Positions 53,761 through 62,376 of a DNA stretch of 64,000 bases are shown here, in pieces (the first letter of the stretch is position 1; each line of letters begins with the position of its first letter). Under the pieces are notes generated by a model. It saw nothing but the letters and a program-made list of their open reading frames with translations. It ran no database searches and was not told where the DNA came from. A program made the position numbers and the translations under genes. The DNA lies in assembly GCA_024693065.1 (NCBI GenBank), contig JAILLP010000006.1, positions 62,001-126,000 on the forward strand, read 5' to 3'. The DNA comes from Paludibacteraceae bacterium. Lineage in GTDB: Bacteria; Bacteroidota; Bacteroidia; Bacteroidales; Paludibacteraceae.

Positions 53761-54511
53761 ATTTGTATTTCAGTTTGTTTAGATAATTATAGTCTGTGTG
53801 GTCCACGAGCATAGGCACTACGGATGCCATGTGGTGCGCAAGCGCCCATTCGTCGGTGTCCTCCGCCTCCGGTTCACGGTTGTGGAACTCTCCTGCCAAG
53901 AGGTACGCGTCGGCGTCGTAGGGCATGTACTCCTCGCTCCAGCGGGCATTGGCTTCACGGCAGAAGCGGATCTCCTTCACCTCTCCCTCCGGGAAGTTCA
54001 CGTTCAGCAAGGTGCCCAACGGCAACGGTGTGCTCAGCACGTCGCTGATCATCTGTGAGATGATGGGCAACGCATCTTCCAAGTCCAGCTTGGCTGCGAA
54101 CTGCACGCTGGAGAAGGCGATAGAGGATATGTTGTTGACGCATCCCTCGATGGCGGCGCCGATCGTTCCGGAATAGACCGCATTCACCGAGGAATTGGAC
54201 CCATGGTTGATGCCTGAGATCACCAGGTCGGGGCGTTTCTCCTTGAAGATGGTGTAGAGGGAGAGCTTCACGCAGTCCACGGGTGTTCCGTTGCAGGAGT
54301 AGACGGTCATCTCTTCGCTTTCGGAGACTAAGGTCATCTTCAGGGGTACGCTATGGGTGATGGCGCATGATTTCCCTGACTGTTGGCAGTCTGGCGCCAC
54401 AATCACCACCTTTCCGTGCTGGCGGGCCACCTCCGACAGCTTGGTGATGCCGTCCGATTGGTAACCATCGTCGTTGGTGATCAGTATGACTGGTTTTTCC
54501 TTCTTCATCAT
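53750..54511 (-). CDS. surE: 5'-nucleotidase SurE
   Basis: 253-residue metal-dependent phosphatase acting on nucleoside monophosphates. The N-terminal ITNDDGYQSDG motif (about residues 11-21, with metal-binding Asp-Asp) and ISGINHGSNS (about 98-107) are clear. It starts with an ATGA overlap at the end of the GH10-like gene and overlaps the membrane protein gene downstream by 11 bases. Confidence 0.94.
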   Translation of the reverse strand: MMKKEKPVILITNDDGYQSDGITKLSEVARQHGKVVIVAPDCQQSGKSCAITHSVPLKMTLVSESEEMTVYSCNGTPVDCVKLSLYTIFKEKRPDLVISGINHGSNSSVNAVYSGTIGAAIEGCVNNISSIAFSSVQFAAKLDLEDALPIISQMISDVLSTPLPLGTLLNVNFPEGEVKEIRFCREANARWSEEYMPYDADAYLLAGEFHNREPEAEDTDEWALAHHMASVVPMLVDHTDYNYLNKLKYKYGK

Positions 54512-56052
54512 TCGTATATTTTAATCATGGTCTGTTTCATTGGCGGTTGTTTCTTCCAATACAGGAAGGTTTCCGGTTCGGACTCGTTTCCGTAGCGGTT
54601 CACTGCCGTGACAACTATGTTATAGATCGTGTCGTTGAGTTTATACTGAGAGAGGTTGACCTCTGCGTCAGGGGTCAAGCACAAGATGTTCTTTGGGTTG
54701 TCGAAGTCGCAGATCTCCGTGTCTTCGAAGGCGTAGACCACATAGTAGGATATCGCTTCTCCCCCTTCCGCCACGACTGGGCTCCAGCGGAGCGTGTCCG
54801 AGTCTATGCGCACATTCAGAGGGAAGAACGCCTCCGCTCCCTTTCCGTGGGCAGGTGGCAAGGCTAGGTAAGGCTGGTACGTTGTCTTTAAGCTATCCAG
54901 CAGGCCTTGCGGGTTGCGCAGGAAGTAGCAGGTGCTGTAGTAAATGACGCCCTCAATATCAACGCATTGCTCGTTGAAACGCAACTGCCGGGCGAGTTCG
55001 TTCGGGGTCTTCCACGCTTTGGTCTTGTTCACAGCGAGGCCCGACGCGTAGAGTCCGAAGTAGAGGTTGCAGTTCTTCACGTTCTCGCGCCACCAAGGAG
55101 CCAACACCGCATAGTCCGCCACGGCCTTGCCCACTTCCCAGTATAATTGTGGGGCGATGTAGTCGATCCATCCCTTGTCCGCCCACAATAGCACGTCGGC
55201 GTAGAGGTCGTCGTAGTTGGTGCATCCCGCCTTTGTGTTGGAACCCTTCGGGTCTTGCGATTTGTTGCGCCACACGCCGAACGGACTGATGCCGAACTGC
55301 ACCCAAGGCTTGGTGTCGAGCAACATTTCATGGATGCGTTTCACGATACGGTTGACGTTGTCGCGGCGCCAGTCGCCTTTATCCTTGAATCCGTGGTTGT
55401 TGGCGCGGAAGGTGGCCTCGTCGGGGAATTCCTTCCCTTTGATGGGGTATGGATAGAAGTAGTCGTCGAGGTGCAGACCGTCGATGTCGTAGCGTGTGAC
55501 GATGTCCTTGAGCACTTTCAGTAGGAACTTCGCGGTCTCTTCCTTTCCCGGGTCGAAATAGATTTTCTCCCCGTAGTTGATGAATAATTCAGGCTTTTTG
55601 TGGTAGATATGGTTGGTGGCGAGTTGTGCGGTCGGCGTGTTGGTCACACGGTAGGGATTGATCCAAGCGTGCAGTTCCATGCACCGTTTGTGGCACTCCT
55701 CCACGGCCACCTGCAGGGGGTCGAAGTCGGTTGACGGGGCTTTTCCTTGCTCCCCCGTCAACCATTCCGACCACGGTTCTATCTTAGACTTATACAGGGC
55801 ATCGGCGGTAGGTCTCACTTGGAACATGATAGCGTTGACACCGCAGTGGTGCAGCGAATCGATCATTTTAACCAATTCCTCTTTCTGCATTTCGGCGGGA
55901 GCTGTTTTGTCCGTCGGCCAGTCTATGTTGGCGACCGTCGCCACCCAAGCGCCGCGCATTTCCCTCTTTTTCTGTGCGGTAGCGTCAGAGAGGAAGGTGA
56001 ATAATAGAAAGAAGATCGCGAATGCCTCTGATATAACTCTTTTATTTTTCAT
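54508..56052 (-). CDS. Glycosyl hydrolase-like 10 (GHL10/YngK-type) exported protein
   Basis: 514 residues. Signal peptide 1-26 (ends DATAQ). The mature protein begins MRGAWVATVANIDWP, the family mark of GHL10, a TIM barrel distantly related to glycoside hydrolases, with DGLHLDDYFYP and HAWINPYR motifs. A fibronectin III-like tail (about 405-500) follows. The natural substrate is uncertain; peptidoglycan or another glycan of the envelope is possible. It overlaps the GH5 gene by 11 bases. Confidence 0.83.
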   Translation of the reverse strand: MKNKRVISEAFAIFFLLFTFLSDATAQKKREMRGAWVATVANIDWPTDKTAPAEMQKEELVKMIDSLHHCGVNAIMFQVRPTADALYKSKIEPWSEWLTGEQGKAPSTDFDPLQVAVEECHKRCMELHAWINPYRVTNTPTAQLATNHIYHKKPELFINYGEKIYFDPGKEETAKFLLKVLKDIVTRYDIDGLHLDDYFYPYPIKGKEFPDEATFRANNHGFKDKGDWRRDNVNRIVKRIHEMLLDTKPWVQFGISPFGVWRNKSQDPKGSNTKAGCTNYDDLYADVLLWADKGWIDYIAPQLYWEVGKAVADYAVLAPWWRENVKNCNLYFGLYASGLAVNKTKAWKTPNELARQLRFNEQCVDIEGVIYYSTCYFLRNPQGLLDSLKTTYQPYLALPPAHGKGAEAFFPLNVRIDSDTLRWSPVVAEGGEAISYYVVYAFEDTEICDFDNPKNILCLTPDAEVNLSQYKLNDTIYNIVVTAVNRYGNESEPETFLYWKKQPPMKQTMIKIYE

Positions 56053-57307
56053 GTAGTTTCTTGTAAATGTATTGGCCCGACTCCGTAAGGATACGTTTGT
56101 CGCAGATCAGGAGGTTACCCTCGTTCCACTTCAGGGTTGCGCTCGCACCACCCTCCGCGCTGAAGCTCCAATTGCACCAGCTGACTTTTTGTCCGCCGAG
56201 GTTGTCACCGTCCAGGATCTTCAACCAACGGTCTGTGATGTCAGGTCTGAAGTTGTTCCAACCGCTTGCGTCAGTCGTTCCGAATTCTGTCACAAAGATA
56301 GGCAAAGTAGCCAAAATACAAGGCGTATGGGAAGCGGAATCTCCCTCACGCAACGGTTTCATGTAGTCATGTCCTCTGTATGGGGAATCTTTGTCTATGC
56401 CGTCGTAGTGGGAAGCTGAGTAGAAGTGGAAGGAGTACATCAGGTTGTCGTAGACGTTACCGTTCTCGTCCTGAGGCTCGTTGCCGATGACCACGTGGGC
56501 GTCCTGGCTCCAGTTAGGCGTACCGCAGATACAGATGACGTCCTTGTCGTAGGAACGGATGATCTTCAGCATATCCTCGCAGTATGGCTTGATGTGGTTA
56601 GGCCAGGTTGTGGCGCCGTTACGAGGGTTCGGTTCGTTGCAGAGCTCGTAGATTATATGTTTCTGGTTCTGGAAACGACGTGCGCAGTAGGTGAAGAAGT
56701 CGCCCGCCAAGTCGATGCCCGACGATGGGTGCTTGCGGTACTGCTTAGCCTCCGGGTTGCCCGGGTTGTGCACGTGCCAGTCGATCAGAAGGTACATACC
56801 GTTCTCTCCGCACCATTTCACCGCATTTTCGAGGTGACGGGAGCGGTGGGTCTCATTGTATGCGTATCCGCCCTCCTCGTCCACGTAGAAGACGATACGG
56901 AAGACGGAGCAGTTCCAGTCGTTGCGTAATGCCTTGATGTTCTCTTCTGTGATGTCCGCCACACCTGCCCATTGCAGTCCGTGCGAGCTCATGCCCTTCA
57001 GTTGGACAGGATTGCCCTTTTCGTCGCAGAGCACGCGCACGCCCTTTTCGTTAGGGGCGACCTTCAGCTTGCCCCATTTGCCTACAGGGGAGTTGGCCGG
57101 ATACTCCATCGGCGGAAGGATCTCCGCATTCAGCGCATCCTCCGTAATCACGCCGATGCCTGACACTTTCTTGGGTTCCTTACTCTCTACACTCTTTCCT
57201 TCACTCTCCTTCGCATCTTTGCCCGCTTGGTCGTTCGTGTTCGAATTTCCGCAAGCCATCATCAAAGTTGCCAAACATGGTATTAGAATACGTTTCAACA
57301 TAAGCAC
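56042..57307 (-). CDS. Family 5 glycoside hydrolase lipoprotein
   Basis: 421 residues. The lipobox MMAC (Cys19) is followed by a Lys/Glu-rich linker to about residue 60. The GH5 barrel has LIDWHVH, acid/base Glu225 in ELCNEPN and nucleophile Glu341 in FVTEFG. The layout is that of endo-beta-1,4-glucanases (GH5_2-like); mannan or mixed-linkage glucan is also possible. It is the first gene of the five-gene operon and has a consensus promoter with a leader of about 20 bases. ATG at 57301 is an alternative start. Confidence 0.87.
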   Translation of the reverse strand: MLMLKRILIPCLATLMMACGNSNTNDQAGKDAKESEGKSVESKEPKKVSGIGVITEDALNAEILPPMEYPANSPVGKWGKLKVAPNEKGVRVLCDEKGNPVQLKGMSSHGLQWAGVADITEENIKALRNDWNCSVFRIVFYVDEEGGYAYNETHRSRHLENAVKWCGENGMYLLIDWHVHNPGNPEAKQYRKHPSSGIDLAGDFFTYCARRFQNQKHIIYELCNEPNPRNGATTWPNHIKPYCEDMLKIIRSYDKDVICICGTPNWSQDAHVVIGNEPQDENGNVYDNLMYSFHFYSASHYDGIDKDSPYRGHDYMKPLREGDSASHTPCILATLPIFVTEFGTTDASGWNNFRPDITDRWLKILDGDNLGGQKVSWCNWSFSAEGGASATLKWNEGNLLICDKRILTESGQYIYKKLHEK

Positions 57308-57333
57308 TGATTTAAAAGTAAAACTTGTTCATA

Positions 57334-57363
57334 CAAATATAAACATTTTTTTCATTCGTGCAA
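57334..57363 (-). promoter_or_regulatory. Promoter of the GH5-lpxB operon
   Basis: On the minus strand TTG (57361-57363), a 19-base spacer and TATATTTG (57334-57341) match the Bacteroidetes consensus. Confidence 0.75.
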
Positions 57364-57400
57364 TAGATGGCGCCGACAATTGTGGCGGGTCTTTATTATT

Positions 57401-57453
57401 AAAAAAGAACCCCGGAAGCGTGAAACCTAAATCGTTTCACGCTTCCAGGGTTC
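57401..57453 (-). terminator. Strong terminator after the giant LRR-GH11 gene
   Basis: On the minus strand GAACCCTGGAAGCGTGAAAC pairs with a nearly perfect 20-base complement across a 7-base loop, then TTTTTT. It separates the giant gene from the GH5 promoter. Confidence 0.9.
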
Positions 57454-57483
57454 AAGCGATTATCGCCGAATCGAACGGTCGGT

Positions 57484-60400
57484 TTACTTCACTACAGTGG
57501 TGAAGGTCTCACCGTTGGTTCTGACGAGATAGATGCCTTTGGCAGGTGCCGTCAGGGTGTGGATATCCGAGGTGGCGATGGAGGTTGAGATGAATCTTCC
57601 GTCCAAGTCATAGAGGGAAACAGCGCCCTCCGCACCACAAACGTAGATCGTATAGTCGCTTGTCCATACGGTTACGCCACTTGCAGTAGTTGTGCTTACA
57701 TTTGTTGATTCAACAAAACTACAACTCAAATCGCCAAGAGAGCTCCTATGTCCTTTCCAAGACATACTTGCGCAAGTGTATTCGATAGAACCAGTTCCCC
57801 CACTTACGTCACAACTAAGCTTACAATCGTAGATGTTACCCAATTCCAATCCCAGATCCTCCCAGTTCTTGAAATGCTCTGTCACATTGATGGCACCACA
57901 TGTCTGCAAGGAAGAACGGACAGCAAAAATTTGTTGGACATTTACTTCCCCTTCGATTGAGGTAGCGTTGGCTCTCTGTCCGACCATCAATTTGTATGTG
58001 ACGCCATCCACCGTATATGTTCCTTTTTCTGTACAACCGTAAATAGAGCCTAATTCTGGATTGAAAGAGTCTTCCAAAATATAGTACTCAATCAAAGGAT
58101 TCTTCATCCATCCGTGAATGCCGATGTAAGAATAGCCTCCAGCTGTTCCGCTCTTTGTGTAGTTGTAGACAGCATAGATGTTGCCTAAATCTGTGTATTT
58201 CTTAGATGCGGTACTATCATGATAGCCCACGCCAGCTATGAAACCATCGGCACGAGTATCGCCCCAACTTGCCTTGAAAGCGCAGTCGGCCTTTCCTCCG
58301 AACACCGTTATGTTTCCTTCGCCTTCTCCAAGGATGAATGTACCTATCTCTGCGGTATAGCCATTGTCAAGAACCTCCAATACGCGATTGCCGCTGTAGT
58401 TTACTCCACCGGAATATGCTGTTGTGTATTCGGAAAGATCGACGCAATCATCGATAATATCCTCTATATATTCCACTCTCCAACCTACAGGGATTCTATC
58501 GACTCCGTATTCAAGTTCCAGTTCTTTTGAACAGATAAAGGTGCCTGTTGGGGCAACGTTTTTCACCCAATCAGTCGTACTATACCAATCCCATTGCGTA
58601 AGACCCACTTCGATTTGGGATAATTTTTTACAACCAGTAAACAGATTTATATAGCAATCATTTGCAATAAATTCCTTAGCTGGCAATTCTGGGGCTCCTG
58701 TCAGATTCGAGCAATTCCTGAACATTTCTCTATAGCATCCTTCTGGTAATGTTGTGGCTGGCAACTCTGGTGCTTGTGTGATGCTTGTACAACCTTCAAA
58801 CATTCCTCTGTAACAACTTCCAGCCAACGTTGTGGCTGGCAACATTGGCGCTTGTGTGAGGTTTTTACAATAATAGAACATCTGACAATAACAAGCTTCT
58901 GCCAATGCCGTAGCTGGCAGTTCAGGTGCCTGCGTTAGATTTGTACAACCATAAAACATTCCAAAATAACACTCTTTAGCCATTGTCGTGGCAGGCAATG
59001 TAGGAGCTTGAGCCAAACTTGTGCAACTTGCGAACATATCGAAATAACAACGATATGCCAATGTGGTGGCTGGCAACTTAGGGGCTTCTGTCAAACTTTT
59101 ACATCCATCAAACATGCCAGTATAACATTTGTCTGTCAACGTCGTAGCTGGCAATTCTGGTGCTTGTGTTAAATTCGAGCAGCCGTAGAACATGCCATTG
59201 TAACAAGATGCCGCTAAAGTTGTCGCTGGTAACTCAGGAGCTTTTTCTAGATTCGAGCAACATTTAAACATATTGTAATAACAGTATTCAGACAATGTCG
59301 TGGCAGGCAATTCAGGAGCTTGTGTCAGACTTGTACATTTTTCGAACAAATGGCAGAAGCCATATGCGTTCGGAATGACGGTGGATTTTCCTCGCTCATC
59401 AATCAGACTCATCACGCTTCCGCTGGCCGCTATCTTACCTGTCATTATAAACTTTATATAATTGTCGGATTCCGACAATCCTTCTGGATTGTAACCCCTC
59501 AGCAACGCTTTATCACCCTTTTTCTTCAGTGTGACCGTCGCCTCCTCCGTCAGATTAATCCACGTTTTTCCTCCGTCTATAGAATACTGTATGTCAGGGT
59601 TGTAATTTCTTAATCCAGCCTCAGAGCCTTCATTAAGTATAGCAAAAGTGGATGATTCCTCTTCCGCAGTGAAGGTCAGATAGTTAGGAGTCATATCCTC
59701 TATATATTTCAATATCCAACCTTTTGGTATTCTATCTGATCCTGTTTCCTCGGCAAGTGCTTTCGGGCAAATAAAATAACCGATAGGAGCCACTCCATAT
59801 ACCCACTCAGCCGTTGAGGTTTCATTCCATTCTGTAAAGTTCACTTTTATCTGCATCAGATTCTCGCAATTTATGAACATTCCATCGTAGCAACCCTCAG
59901 CCAAAGTGGTGGCTGGCAACTCTGGGGCTTTCGTGAATGTGCACCCTCCGAACATTTTATAATAGCAATAATCGGCTAATGTAGTGGCTGGCAATTCTGG
60001 GGCTTTAATGATTCCATCGCATCCACCGAACATCTGAGAATAGCAATAATCAGCCAACGTTGTGGCAGGCAATTCCGGTGCGACTCTGATTTTCGGGCAT
60101 CTGATGAACATTCCCTTGTAACACTCGGCTGCCAATGTCTTGGCTGGCAATGCTGGTGCTTCGACAAGGCTTGTACAATCGCTGAACATATATTCATAGC
60201 AATTGCTTGTCATCTTTTGGGCAGGCAATTCAGGTGCATGGGTCAGACCCGTGCAAAACTCGAACAAATGGGTGAAGCAAAAATCGTTCGGGATGGCGGT
60301 GGTCTCTCCTGATCCATCAATCAAGCTCATCACGCTTCCGCTGGCCGCGATCTTACCGGTCATCAAGAATCTTGTGTATAGATAGTATGCTTTAGAGAAT

Positions 60401-62376
60401 CCTTCTGGATTGGTTCCCCTAAGCAGCGCCTGGTCTCCCTTGCTTGCCAATGTGATTGCGGTATCCGCTTTCAAATCGAACCATGTCTCTCCTCCATCCA
60501 AAGAGTACTGTAGGTCAGGGATATTATCTCCGTGGTTTTCAATACCAAACGTGACGCTATCCTCCTCTGCCGTGAATGTCAGGTAATTGATATGATGCTT
60601 CAATATCCATCCTTTAGGAATTCTATTTACTCCAGTTTCCTCGGCAAGTGCCTTCGGGCAAATGAAATAACCGATAGGAGCCACTCCATATACCCACTCA
60701 GACGTTGAGGTTTCATTCCATTCTGTAAAGTTCACTTTAATTTGACTCAGATTCTCGCAACCCGAGAACATTCCGCTGTAGCAACCGTCAACCAATGTGG
60801 TGGCTGGCAACTCAGGTGCTTTCGTGAATGTGCAACCTGAGAACATGTTGTAATAGCAATGATCGGCTAATGTCTTGGCTGGCAATGCAGGCGCATTAAT
60901 GATACCCTTGCAAGCCGCAAACATATTATAATAACAATAATCAGCCAACGTCGTGGCAGGCAACTCCGGTGCGACTATGATTTTTGAGCATCTGATGAAC
61001 ATTCCCTCGTAACATTCTGCCGCCAATGCCTTGGCTGGCAATTCAGGTGCTTGGGCAAGGTTTGTACAACCGCTGAACATATACTCATAGCAGTTGTTCG
61101 TCAACCTCTTCGCTGGCAATGCAGGAGCTTGGATAAGGCTTGCGCAATCCTCGAACAAATGGGTGAAGCAAAAACCATTCGGGATCTCGGTGGTCTCTCC
61201 GGATCCATCAATCAGGCTCATCACGCTTCCGCTCGCCGCTATCTTACCGGTCATCGTGAATTTTGTATATAGACTTTCTGCTATAGAGAATCCATCAGGA
61301 TTTGTTCCCCTGATCAACGCTTGGTCTCCCTTGCTCTTCAATGTGATCGCGCTTTCCGCTTTCAGATCGATCCATGTCTTTCCTCCATCCAAGGAGTACT
61401 GTAGGTTAGGGGTATTTTCACCATGGCTTTCAACACCAAACGTAGAGTTATCCTCCTCTGCGGTGAATGTCAGATAATTAGCATACTCATCCTTTAAGGA
61501 TTTCACTATCCATGTCTGGGGGATTCGATCCACTCCATATTCGAGAGGCAACGACTCAGGACAGACAAATATGCCTCCTTGGGTGTTTACATCAGTGACC
61601 CAACCGCTGGTATTCGAGTCGAATACACCTTCTCTGACTTCATAATCTTCTCCCCAATCCGGGATGTTCACCGATATTTTCTTTAAAGATCTACATTTCC
61701 CGAACATGCCTCCATAACATGGCAAGAATCTGGATGCGTCTCCACTATAATCCTTGAAGAATTTAGTAGCTGGCAAATATGGGGATTCTATCAAATTCTC
61801 ACAGAAATAGAACATAAACATATAACATCCTGGGAACAACGTTGTCGCCGGCAATTCAGGAGCTTGTGTGAGGCTCGTGCAATCATAGAACATCTCCTGA
61901 TAACATTGGTTCCTCAATGTCGTGGCTGGCAACTCGGGAGCCTTGGTTAAAGCTATACAGGTGTTGAATAATCTGTAAAAACAACCATTGGAAGGAATAG
62001 TGGTAGAGGTTCCCTCTCCGTCTACCAGACTCATCACACTTCCGCTTGCAGCGATCTTGCCAGTCATTATAAACTGGGTGAAATCGTAATAATATTCACC
62101 GTCTTGTTCAAAGGCAGTGCTGAATCCATCGGGGTTGTTGCCCTTTAGCAATGCCTTGTCTCCGATGTTTTTCAGTTCTACACGCTCTTTCGGATGTAGG
62201 ACTATCCACGTTTTTCCATCGTCTAGCGAATACTGCACGTCAGGCTCATTGTCCTCGCTATTGAGAATTCCGAACTTCGACCCTGCCTCTTCGGCGGTGA
62301 AAGTCAGATAGTTGGCTGCGAATGCGATACTGATGGCGCATTGCAATAGGATAAGAGTTAGTAATTTTTTAATCAT
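57484..62376 (-). CDS. Giant exported protein: four LRR modules, GH11 xylanase-like domain, T9SS-type C-terminus
   Basis: 1630 residues from the ATG at 62376, which gives a clean signal peptide (MIKKLLTLIL...AFAA). Four modules begin NYLTFTAEE at residues 22, 300, 597 and 898, each followed by BspA-like leucine-rich repeats (LTQAPELPATTL...CYxxMF). Residues about 1340-1540 match GH11: YSYIGIHGWMKNPLIEYYI, with nucleophile Glu1430. The acid/base position (SCDVSGGTGS) has Asp1523 where GH11 enzymes have Glu. The end, VSLYDLDG...KGIYLVRT, resembles a T9SS type A sorting domain. GH11 enzymes cut beta-1,4-xylan. Confidence 0.8.
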   Translation of the reverse strand: MIKKLLTLILLQCAISIAFAANYLTFTAEEAGSKFGILNSEDNEPDVQYSLDDGKTWIVLHPKERVELKNIGDKALLKGNNPDGFSTAFEQDGEYYYDFTQFIMTGKIAASGSVMSLVDGEGTSTTIPSNGCFYRLFNTCIALTKAPELPATTLRNQCYQEMFYDCTSLTQAPELPATTLFPGCYMFMFYFCENLIESPYLPATKFFKDYSGDASRFLPCYGGMFGKCRSLKKISVNIPDWGEDYEVREGVFDSNTSGWVTDVNTQGGIFVCPESLPLEYGVDRIPQTWIVKSLKDEYANYLTFTAEEDNSTFGVESHGENTPNLQYSLDGGKTWIDLKAESAITLKSKGDQALIRGTNPDGFSIAESLYTKFTMTGKIAASGSVMSLIDGSGETTEIPNGFCFTHLFEDCASLIQAPALPAKRLTNNCYEYMFSGCTNLAQAPELPAKALAAECYEGMFIRCSKIIVAPELPATTLADYCYYNMFAACKGIINAPALPAKTLADHCYYNMFSGCTFTKAPELPATTLVDGCYSGMFSGCENLSQIKVNFTEWNETSTSEWVYGVAPIGYFICPKALAEETGVNRIPKGWILKHHINYLTFTAEEDSVTFGIENHGDNIPDLQYSLDGGETWFDLKADTAITLASKGDQALLRGTNPEGFSKAYYLYTRFLMTGKIAASGSVMSLIDGSGETTAIPNDFCFTHLFEFCTGLTHAPELPAQKMTSNCYEYMFSDCTSLVEAPALPAKTLAAECYKGMFIRCPKIRVAPELPATTLADYCYSQMFGGCDGIIKAPELPATTLADYCYYKMFGGCTFTKAPELPATTLAEGCYDGMFINCENLMQIKVNFTEWNETSTAEWVYGVAPIGYFICPKALAEETGSDRIPKGWILKYIEDMTPNYLTFTAEEESSTFAILNEGSEAGLRNYNPDIQYSIDGGKTWINLTEEATVTLKKKGDKALLRGYNPEGLSESDNYIKFIMTGKIAASGSVMSLIDERGKSTVIPNAYGFCHLFEKCTSLTQAPELPATTLSEYCYYNMFKCCSNLEKAPELPATTLAASCYNGMFYGCSNLTQAPELPATTLTDKCYTGMFDGCKSLTEAPKLPATTLAYRCYFDMFASCTSLAQAPTLPATTMAKECYFGMFYGCTNLTQAPELPATALAEACYCQMFYYCKNLTQAPMLPATTLAGSCYRGMFEGCTSITQAPELPATTLPEGCYREMFRNCSNLTGAPELPAKEFIANDCYINLFTGCKKLSQIEVGLTQWDWYSTTDWVKNVAPTGTFICSKELELEYGVDRIPVGWRVEYIEDIIDDCVDLSEYTTAYSGGVNYSGNRVLEVLDNGYTAEIGTFILGEGEGNITVFGGKADCAFKASWGDTRADGFIAGVGYHDSTASKKYTDLGNIYAVYNYTKSGTAGGYSYIGIHGWMKNPLIEYYILEDSFNPELGSIYGCTEKGTYTVDGVTYKLMVGQRANATSIEGEVNVQQIFAVRSSLQTCGAINVTEHFKNWEDLGLELGNIYDCKLSCDVSGGTGSIEYTCASMSWKGHRSSLGDLSCSFVESTNVSTTTASGVTVWTSDYTIYVCGAEGAVSLYDLDGRFISTSIATSDIHTLTAPAKGIYLVRTNGETFTTVVK
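58660..59345 (-). repeat. 78-base tandem repeats (26-residue LRR units)
   Basis: About nine direct repeats of 26 codons encode C-x-x-L-T-x-APELPATTL-x-x-x-CY-x-x-MF-x-x in module four. Shorter runs of the same unit occur in modules one to three. Confidence 0.85.

What the first reader, a model, noticed from the sequence alone, without database searches (positions are those of the whole stretch)
57484..62376. LRR protein fused to a GH11 xylanase-like domain with Asp at the acid/base position
Residues about 1340-1540 align with GH11: the segment ending NPLIEYYI carries nucleophile Glu1430, and the HFKNWEDLGLELG stretch matches the end of the fold. Where GH11 enzymes of gut and rumen origin have Glu before a GGGTGS-like loop, this protein has Asp1523 (SCDVSGGTGS). 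The domain sits after four BspA-like LRR modules and before a T9SS-type tail. It could be a slow enzyme, a xylan-binding domain, or an enzyme with altered pH response. LRR-GH11-T9SS is an unusual architecture.
Basis: partly seen in the sequence, partly recalled or inferred. Interest (0 to 1): 0.78.

Follow-up and report, generated by a model that had tools for sequence, protein, structure and literature searches.

The report
Probably dead xylanase on surface protein
A bacterium of a gut-dwelling group carries a giant surface-type protein of leucine-rich repeats into which a xylan-cutting enzyme domain has been spliced, but that domain has lost several of its working residues and probably no longer cuts.

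Summary
The minus-strand gene 57484-62376 encodes 1630 aa: probable signal peptide, four BspA-type LRR modules, a GH11 domain (PF00457, E 1e-30) and a T9SS-type tail. Asp1523 sits at the GH11 acid/base position; Glu1430 (nucleophile) is kept. The domain has also lost the cleft Trp (BcX W9 -> Gly1345) and Tyr69 (-> His1421). A full-length syntenic ortholog in Bacteroidales bacterium UBA1181 shares both losses and has Asn, not Asp, at the acid/base. Of 117 aligned domains with a residue there, 113 have Glu and 2 are alignment shifts; only this pair deviates. Between the two species the domain's dN/dS is 0.31, against 0.02 for one Glu-bearing GH11 of the same genomes, yet clearly below 1. Of 86 GH11 host ORFs examined only these 2 have LRR modules; none of 44 other LRR-module ORFs has GH11. 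Best reading: a GH11-derived pseudoenzyme module captured by an expanded LRR surface-protein family and kept as a folded, possibly glycan-binding domain. Activity and binding could not be tested here.

The parts
57484..62376 (-). whole gene, 1630 aa: probable signal peptide, 4 LRR modules, GH11-like domain, C-terminal sorting tail
62317..62376 (-). probable signal peptide, residues 1-20
   Evidence: read by eye from the sequence; no signal-peptide program was run
61480..62313 (-). LRR module 1 (residues 22-299)
60589..61479 (-). LRR module 2 (residues 300-596)
59686..60588 (-). LRR module 3 (residues 597-897)
58450..59685 (-). LRR module 4 (residues 898-1309)
57721..58449 (-). GH11-like domain (residues 1310-1552)
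58342..58344 (-). Gly1345 (GGT) at the cleft Trp position (W9 of B. circulans xylanase); Gly also in the ortholog
58243..58245 (-). Gly1378 (GGT) aligned to the residue-35 position, next to a two-residue insertion, so the pairing is uncertain (an Asp precedes it); the ortholog has Asp here
58114..58116 (-). His1421 (CAC) at the Tyr69 position; His also in the ortholog
58087..58089 (-). Glu1430 (GAG), nucleophile position, kept
57808..57810 (-). Asp1523 (GAC) at the acid/base position; Asn (AAC) in the ortholog
57487..57720 (-). C-terminal tail (residues 1553-1630): DUF6383 / T9SS type A sorting domain, resembling the tails of other LRR-module proteins
56042..57307 (-). neighbouring GH5 protein (lipoprotein signal by eye), syntenic in the ortholog locus; association by position only

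Best explanation
A GH11 xylanase domain from the Paludibacteraceae multi-domain xylanases was inserted between the LRR modules and the sorting tail of a member of an expanded BspA-type LRR surface-protein family. It then lost part of its catalytic machinery (acid/base Glu to Asp or Asn, cleft Trp to Gly, Tyr69 to His, altered residue-35 loop) while keeping fold, nucleophile and most conserved residues. Shown: domain, architecture, losses, ortholog, rates. Inferred: no useful xylan hydrolysis (about 80% likely); export and surface display by T9SS; a remaining role as a folded surface module, most likely weak glycan binding or extension of the LRR adhesin's ligand surface (about 40%).
For: Acid/base column: 113 Glu, 1 Asp (window), 1 Asn (ortholog L036) and 2 Thr that are alignment shifts, of 117 domains with a residue; 3 of 120 are gaps. 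W9 position: Trp in 110 of 113, Gly in window and ortholog, Tyr in degenerate L070. Tyr69 position: Tyr in 109 of 115, His in 5 including window and ortholog. Sites at least 95% conserved in the other domains: 60 of 77 non-redundant domains break none, the window 6 of 23, the ortholog 2 of 23. dN/dS of the pair 0.31 against 0.023 for a Glu-bearing GH11 of the same two species; difference counts differ, Fisher P 9e-9. pN is below pS, P 1e-9, so it is not neutral debris. The tree pairs the two (100/100) inside a 21-row supported clade whose other 19 rows carry Glu; stem 0.29, nearest tips L038 and L041 0.03. Of 86 GH11 host ORFs only these 2 have LRR modules; 0 of 44 other LRR-module ORFs has GH11. 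SprA is in the genome. Passages read: Tyr69 'critical for activity' (PMC12078400); residue 35 hydrogen-bonds Glu172 (PMC4498622); conserved substrate-binding Trp and Tyr that I map to W9 and Tyr69 by numbering offset (PMC10576002).
Against: Only two sequences define the group. Asp can in principle act as a general acid, and the nucleophile, Tyr80, Arg112, Gln127 and Trp71 equivalents are kept. His at Tyr69 also occurs in two Glu-bearing domains, L053 and L054, so it need not abolish activity. The ortholog's 2 broken sites are not unusual in number (6 other domains also break 2; L070 breaks 10 and 7, and L090-L092, distant canonical types, 4-5). The LRR part and tail also have raised dN/dS (0.17-0.36), so the rate is not specific to enzyme loss; 3 of 249 pairs, more distant ones, have higher dN/dS; the same-genome control is a single pair. 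Other stems in the clade reach 0.22. Losing two binding residues argues against strong xylan binding in the old cleft. No model coordinates were available, so side-chain geometry was not seen.
Confidence: 0.6

Rival explanations
1. Decaying passenger: the GH11 domain was captured by recombination and is drifting with no role beyond not disrupting the LRR protein.
For: Conserved sites lost; dN/dS raised to about the level of LRR module 4 (0.31 against 0.36); Asp against Asn at the acid/base; the window has lost more conserved sites than its ortholog (6 against 2 of 23).
Against: Open in both species with no stop inside; dN/dS well below 1 (P 1e-9); dS 0.57, close to a neighbouring gene's 0.62, implies retention since the species split; 17 of 23 conserved sites kept by both; the model folds well.
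Confidence: 0.25
2. Altered enzyme: Asp serves as a shortened acid/base, giving a slow or differently tuned hydrolase, perhaps with a new substrate because of Gly1345 and His1421.
For: Nucleophile and several cleft residues kept; His at Tyr69 occurs in two Glu-bearing relatives; Asp is chemically competent; recalled, not read here: E172D of B. circulans xylanase keeps some activity (one search found no paper).
Against: Asn in the ortholog; W9 and Tyr69 equivalents replaced in both; weak constraint compared with a Glu-bearing paralog.
Confidence: 0.12
3. Assembly or sequencing artefact.
For: The ortholog's genome is a MAG, the window's genome is an unnamed 37-contig assembly, and LRR modules are repetitive.
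Against: A second assembly (DBYR01000004.1) has the same architecture, gene order and two of the same losses; the LRR-GH11 junction lies in one open frame in both.
Confidence: 0.03

Closest known systems
GH11 endo-1,4-beta-xylanases (PF00457; nearest solved 5gv1/5gya 'ENZbleach' xylanase)
   Same: Fold, nucleophile Glu, Tyr80, Arg112, Gln127 and Trp71 equivalents
   Different: Acid/base Glu replaced by Asp (Asn in the ortholog); cleft Trp and Tyr69 replaced; no activity shown
Paludibacteraceae multi-domain xylanases (L038, L043: SASA esterase - GH11 - CBM6 - glucuronoyl esterase - Por_Secre_tail)
   Same: 67-68% identical GH11 domain in the same family of organisms, sorting tail
   Different: Those keep the catalytic residues and sit among esterases and a CBM, not LRRs
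BspA-type LRR-module proteins (PF13306) of the same genus
   Same: Module sequence, similar tail and so likely the same secretion route
   Different: None of the 44 others examined has a GH11 domain
Glycoside hydrolase pseudoenzymes: beetle GH28 (PMC6549527, abstract seen); Cel5C_C of a rumen T9SS cellulase with a suspected active-site mutation (PMC5831590, passages seen)
   Same: Catalytic family member with lost or very low activity retained in a plant-fibre degrader
   Different: Other families (GH28, GH5); no LRR fusion described in what I saw

Membership tests
GH11 (by sequence and fold) | PF00457 match over the curated cut-off | tested here: met
   107.1 bits against 27
GH11 (by sequence and fold) | fold closest to GH11 structures | tested here: met
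   AlphaFold2 model; Foldseek ranks 1-14 are GH11 xylanases
GH11 (as active retaining xylanase) | Glu nucleophile | tested here: met
   Glu1430; Glu in 115 of 115 domains with a residue
GH11 (as active retaining xylanase) | Glu general acid/base | tested here: not met
   Asp1523; Asn in the ortholog
GH11 (as active retaining xylanase) | Trp (W9) and Tyr69 in the glycone subsites | tested here: not met
   Gly1345 and His1421, both also in the ortholog
GH11 (as active retaining xylanase) | hydrolysis of xylan | not testable with these tools
   needs an assay
BspA-type LRR protein | LRR_5 over cut-off, repeated units | tested here: met
   38.7 against 27.7 bits for the whole protein; 22 units
T9SS cargo | C-terminal sorting domain | tested here: inconclusive
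   19.6 bits, below the cut-off of 23; 25.5 bits, above it; tail like those of other LRR-module proteins
T9SS cargo | T9SS translocon in the genome | tested here: met
   SprA, 2408.7 bits; other components not searched
T9SS cargo | N-terminal signal peptide | not tested
   read by eye only
Carbohydrate-binding module | binds a glycan without cleaving it | not testable with these tools
   needs binding assays

The most novel reading that the evidence does not exclude
A GH11 fold turned into a non-catalytic surface recognition module, of which the searches made here found no report: a xylanase captured by an LRR adhesin that kept part of its cleft to hold plant glycan (or another ligand) while losing the ability to cut it, giving fibre attachment rather than digestion.
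Probability: 0.35. Interest if true: 0.66.

Novelty: new variant of a known kind. Interest (0 to 1): 0.5.

Why it matters
If true, it shows how a lineage rich in xylanases recycles an enzyme domain into a surface protein, offers a natural GH11 'dead' domain for studying which residues binding and catalysis need, and warns that GH11 counts from HMM searches can include non-enzymes. How uncultured rumen Bacteroidales attach to fibre is poorly known (general knowledge), and this makes one candidate testable.

Tried and rejected
Rejected: assembly artefact (second genome). Rejected: another residue taking the acid/base place through misalignment; the flanking stretch from 'CK' to 'SIEY' aligns without gaps to 13 Glu-bearing relatives, and by eye no new acidic residue shared by both orthologs lies near it. 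Two further 'non-Glu' rows (L091, L092) are one-column alignment shifts, since their sequence reads TEGY. Among 21 domains from the order-wide search (17 of 393 genomes with a match), 20 read Glu at the place by eye and L164 does not; L164 and L165 are so divergent (end branches over 2) that their alignment is unsure.

Led nowhere: E172D literature (no paper); GH11 plus LRR plus type IX secretion (no paper). No title or abstract start in the listings pointed to such a fusion; some searches listed 12 of 17, 12 of 39 and 10 of 15 papers. All cover open-licence full texts only.

Limits: dN/dS used Nei-Gojobori with Jukes-Cantor, two sequences at a time; no branch model was run. The GH11 slice is residues 1314-1546. 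The 249 pairs are those with at least 120 codons and dS between 0.2 and 1.2; other pairs were dropped. One search used 110 domains of at least 200 aa reduced to 77 at 95% identity. The tree used 90 of 141 domains (at least 190 aa, under 93% identity). Not every GH11 match was fetched; among those left out are G003:C93, G110:C39, G085:C33, G133:C114, G065, G075, G093, G119, G121, G038, G209, G048:C25 and G110:C41. Several of the 86 host ORFs are cut by contig ends. The first LRR-unit count printed 0 because of a wrong pattern; the 22 units are. Gene names MtgA, SurE and LpxB and the lipoprotein label of GH5 are recalled from sequence and come from no call. B. circulans residue numbers were mapped by motif from recall.

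Full report
WHAT IS THERE. The minus-strand gene 57484-62376 encodes 1630 aa. Pfam finds BspA-type LRR_5 and GH11 (PF00457, residues 1352-1529, E 1.1e-30), with DUF6383 at the C-terminus. Four modules begin at residues 22, 300, 597 and 898 and carry 22 'xPxLPA' units, mostly 26 residues apart; the GH11 unit runs from about 1310 to 1552. The tail scores 19.6 bits against the T9SS sorting model in a single-protein scan (cut-off 23) and 25.5 bits in the genome scan, which has 78 matches. The genome has the T9SS translocon SprA (2408.7 bits). A GH5 protein and a GHL10 protein lie downstream on the same strand.

THE ACTIVE SITE. Asp1523 aligns with the acid/base Glu of the nearest solved xylanase (5gv1); Glu1430 is the nucleophile. 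I extracted 120 GH11 domains from loci of the same bacterial family and aligned them. Of 117 with a residue at the acid/base column, 113 have Glu, the window has Asp, its ortholog has Asn, and two Thr are alignment shifts. The cleft Trp (W9 in Bacillus circulans numbering, mapped by motif from recall) is Trp in 110 of 113; Gly in window and ortholog, Tyr in the degenerate L070. Tyr69 is Tyr in 109 of 115 and His in five: window, ortholog, L053, L054 and L070. L053 and L054 keep their Glu, so His alone need not mean a dead enzyme. At the residue-35 position the window has Gly beside a two-residue insertion, so the pairing is uncertain; the ortholog has Asp. Tyr80, Arg112, Gln127 and Trp71 equivalents are kept. 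From passages read: Tyr69 is described as critical for activity (PMC12078400); residue 35 hydrogen-bonds the acid/base Glu172 (PMC4498622); a Trp and a Tyr that map to W9 and Tyr69 are among the conserved substrate-binding residues (PMC10576002).

THE ORTHOLOG. L036 (genome G027; contig of the same length, 128,943 bases, as DBYR01000004.1 of Bacteroidales bacterium UBA1181) has a 1635-aa protein of the same architecture with the same neighbours, which I name MtgA, GH5, GHL10, SurE and LpxB, all but GH5 and GHL10 from recall. Codons at the acid/base are GAC (window), AAC (ortholog) and GAG or GAA (relatives), which fits Glu to Asp to Asn, an inference. All 16 held genomes of the genus were searched with an LRR module and all 358 held genomes of the family with the GH11 domain; 43 of 358 have a GH11-like match.

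RATES. Between the two species dN/dS is 0.31 for the GH11 slice; 0.17, 0.24, 0.19 and 0.36 for the four LRR slices; 0.27 for the tail; 0.05 for GH5; and 0.12-0.15 for GHL10, SurE, LpxB and MtgA. A Glu-bearing GH11 shared by the same two genomes has dN 0.0066 and dS 0.287, ratio 0.023, and its counts differ from the window pair at P 9e-9. This is one control pair, the only full-length one found between these genomes. Over 249 pairs with dS 0.2-1.2 the median is 0.154 and the 95th percentile 0.23; the window pair is fourth highest, below three more distant pairs. Yet pN is below pS at P 1e-9, so the domain is still constrained, about as much as its LRR host. dS is uneven: 0.05-0.28 in the LRR part, 0.14 in the tail and GH5 and 0.28 in GHL10, against 0.57 in GH11 and 0.62-0.89 in MtgA, LpxB and SurE, which suggests recent exchange or homogenisation.

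ORIGIN. In the tree (90 domains) window and ortholog are sisters (100/100) with a stem of 0.29, inside a supported 21-row clade (100/97) whose nearest tips, L038 and L041, have branches near 0.03 and keep the catalytic residues; other stems in the clade reach 0.22. L038 is a SASA esterase - GH11 - CBM6 - glucuronoyl esterase protein with a sorting tail. LRR modules are expanded in the genus, unevenly: 15 of 16 genomes match, 11 with 46-175 matches (121 in the window's genome) and the other 5 with 0-9. In 20 stretches fetched from six genomes (one of only 86 bases) 44 other LRR-module ORFs of at least 250 codons were found; 25 of them end in a tail of about 70 aa like the window's, 2 end in a longer unmatched stretch, and the rest showed no separate tail, some being cut by the stretch; none has GH11. 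Of 86 GH11 host ORFs, some cut by contig ends, LRR modules occur only in these two. So the parsimonious history is insertion of a GH11 domain between LRR modules and tail, followed by loss of the catalytic set.

MECHANISM. Best supported: secreted and displayed by T9SS (inferred); LRR modules act as the adhesin body (inferred from the family name, no binding data); the GH11-derived domain is a folded, non-hydrolytic module. Whether it binds glycan is open: part of the cleft is kept, two binding residues are gone. The fold is supported by the model (pLDDT 84.3; a Glu-bearing relative gave 85.7) and by Foldseek, but the stretch after Gly1345 is poorly modelled and side-chain geometry could not be inspected.

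NOVELTY. Glycoside hydrolase pseudoenzymes are known (PMC6549527, abstract; a nearly inactive GH5 domain in a rumen T9SS cellulase, PMC5831590, passages). No paper combining GH11, leucine-rich repeat and type IX secretion was found, in open-licence texts only. I rate it a new variant of a known kind.

Noticed in passing
L070 4301-6073 (-), genome G155: A second, independent degenerate GH11 protein: 591 aa with two GH11 domains that break 10 of 26 and 7 of 25 conserved sites, with a sorting-tail match below cut-off and no LRR.
   Followed up: partly
L042 4927-9150, L045 732-5048, L041 3751-7992: Proteins with four tandem GH11 domains, all with Glu at the acid/base; L042 also carries a BD-FAE (feruloyl-esterase-type) domain and a sorting tail.
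   Followed up: partly
genus of the window: Expansion of BspA-type LRR modules: over 100 matches in 4 of 16 genomes, with open frames up to 3489 codons among the matches listed.
   Followed up: partly
window 54508-62376 against L036: Synonymous divergence from UBA1181 is 0.05-0.28 across the LRR part, tail, GH5 and GHL10 while GH11, MtgA, LpxB and SurE stay at 0.57-0.89, suggesting recombination or gene conversion between species.
   Followed up: no
genome G000 contigs C5, C9, C18, C23 (L005, L003, L001, L002): Four other GH11 pieces of the same genome lie near or at contig ends, three of them broken there, perhaps because near-identical GH11 copies stopped the assembly.
   Followed up: no
L164 (G681) and L165 (G655): Highly divergent GH11-like domains in other families of the order; L164 also reads His at the Tyr69 position and no clear acid/base Glu.
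   Followed up: no
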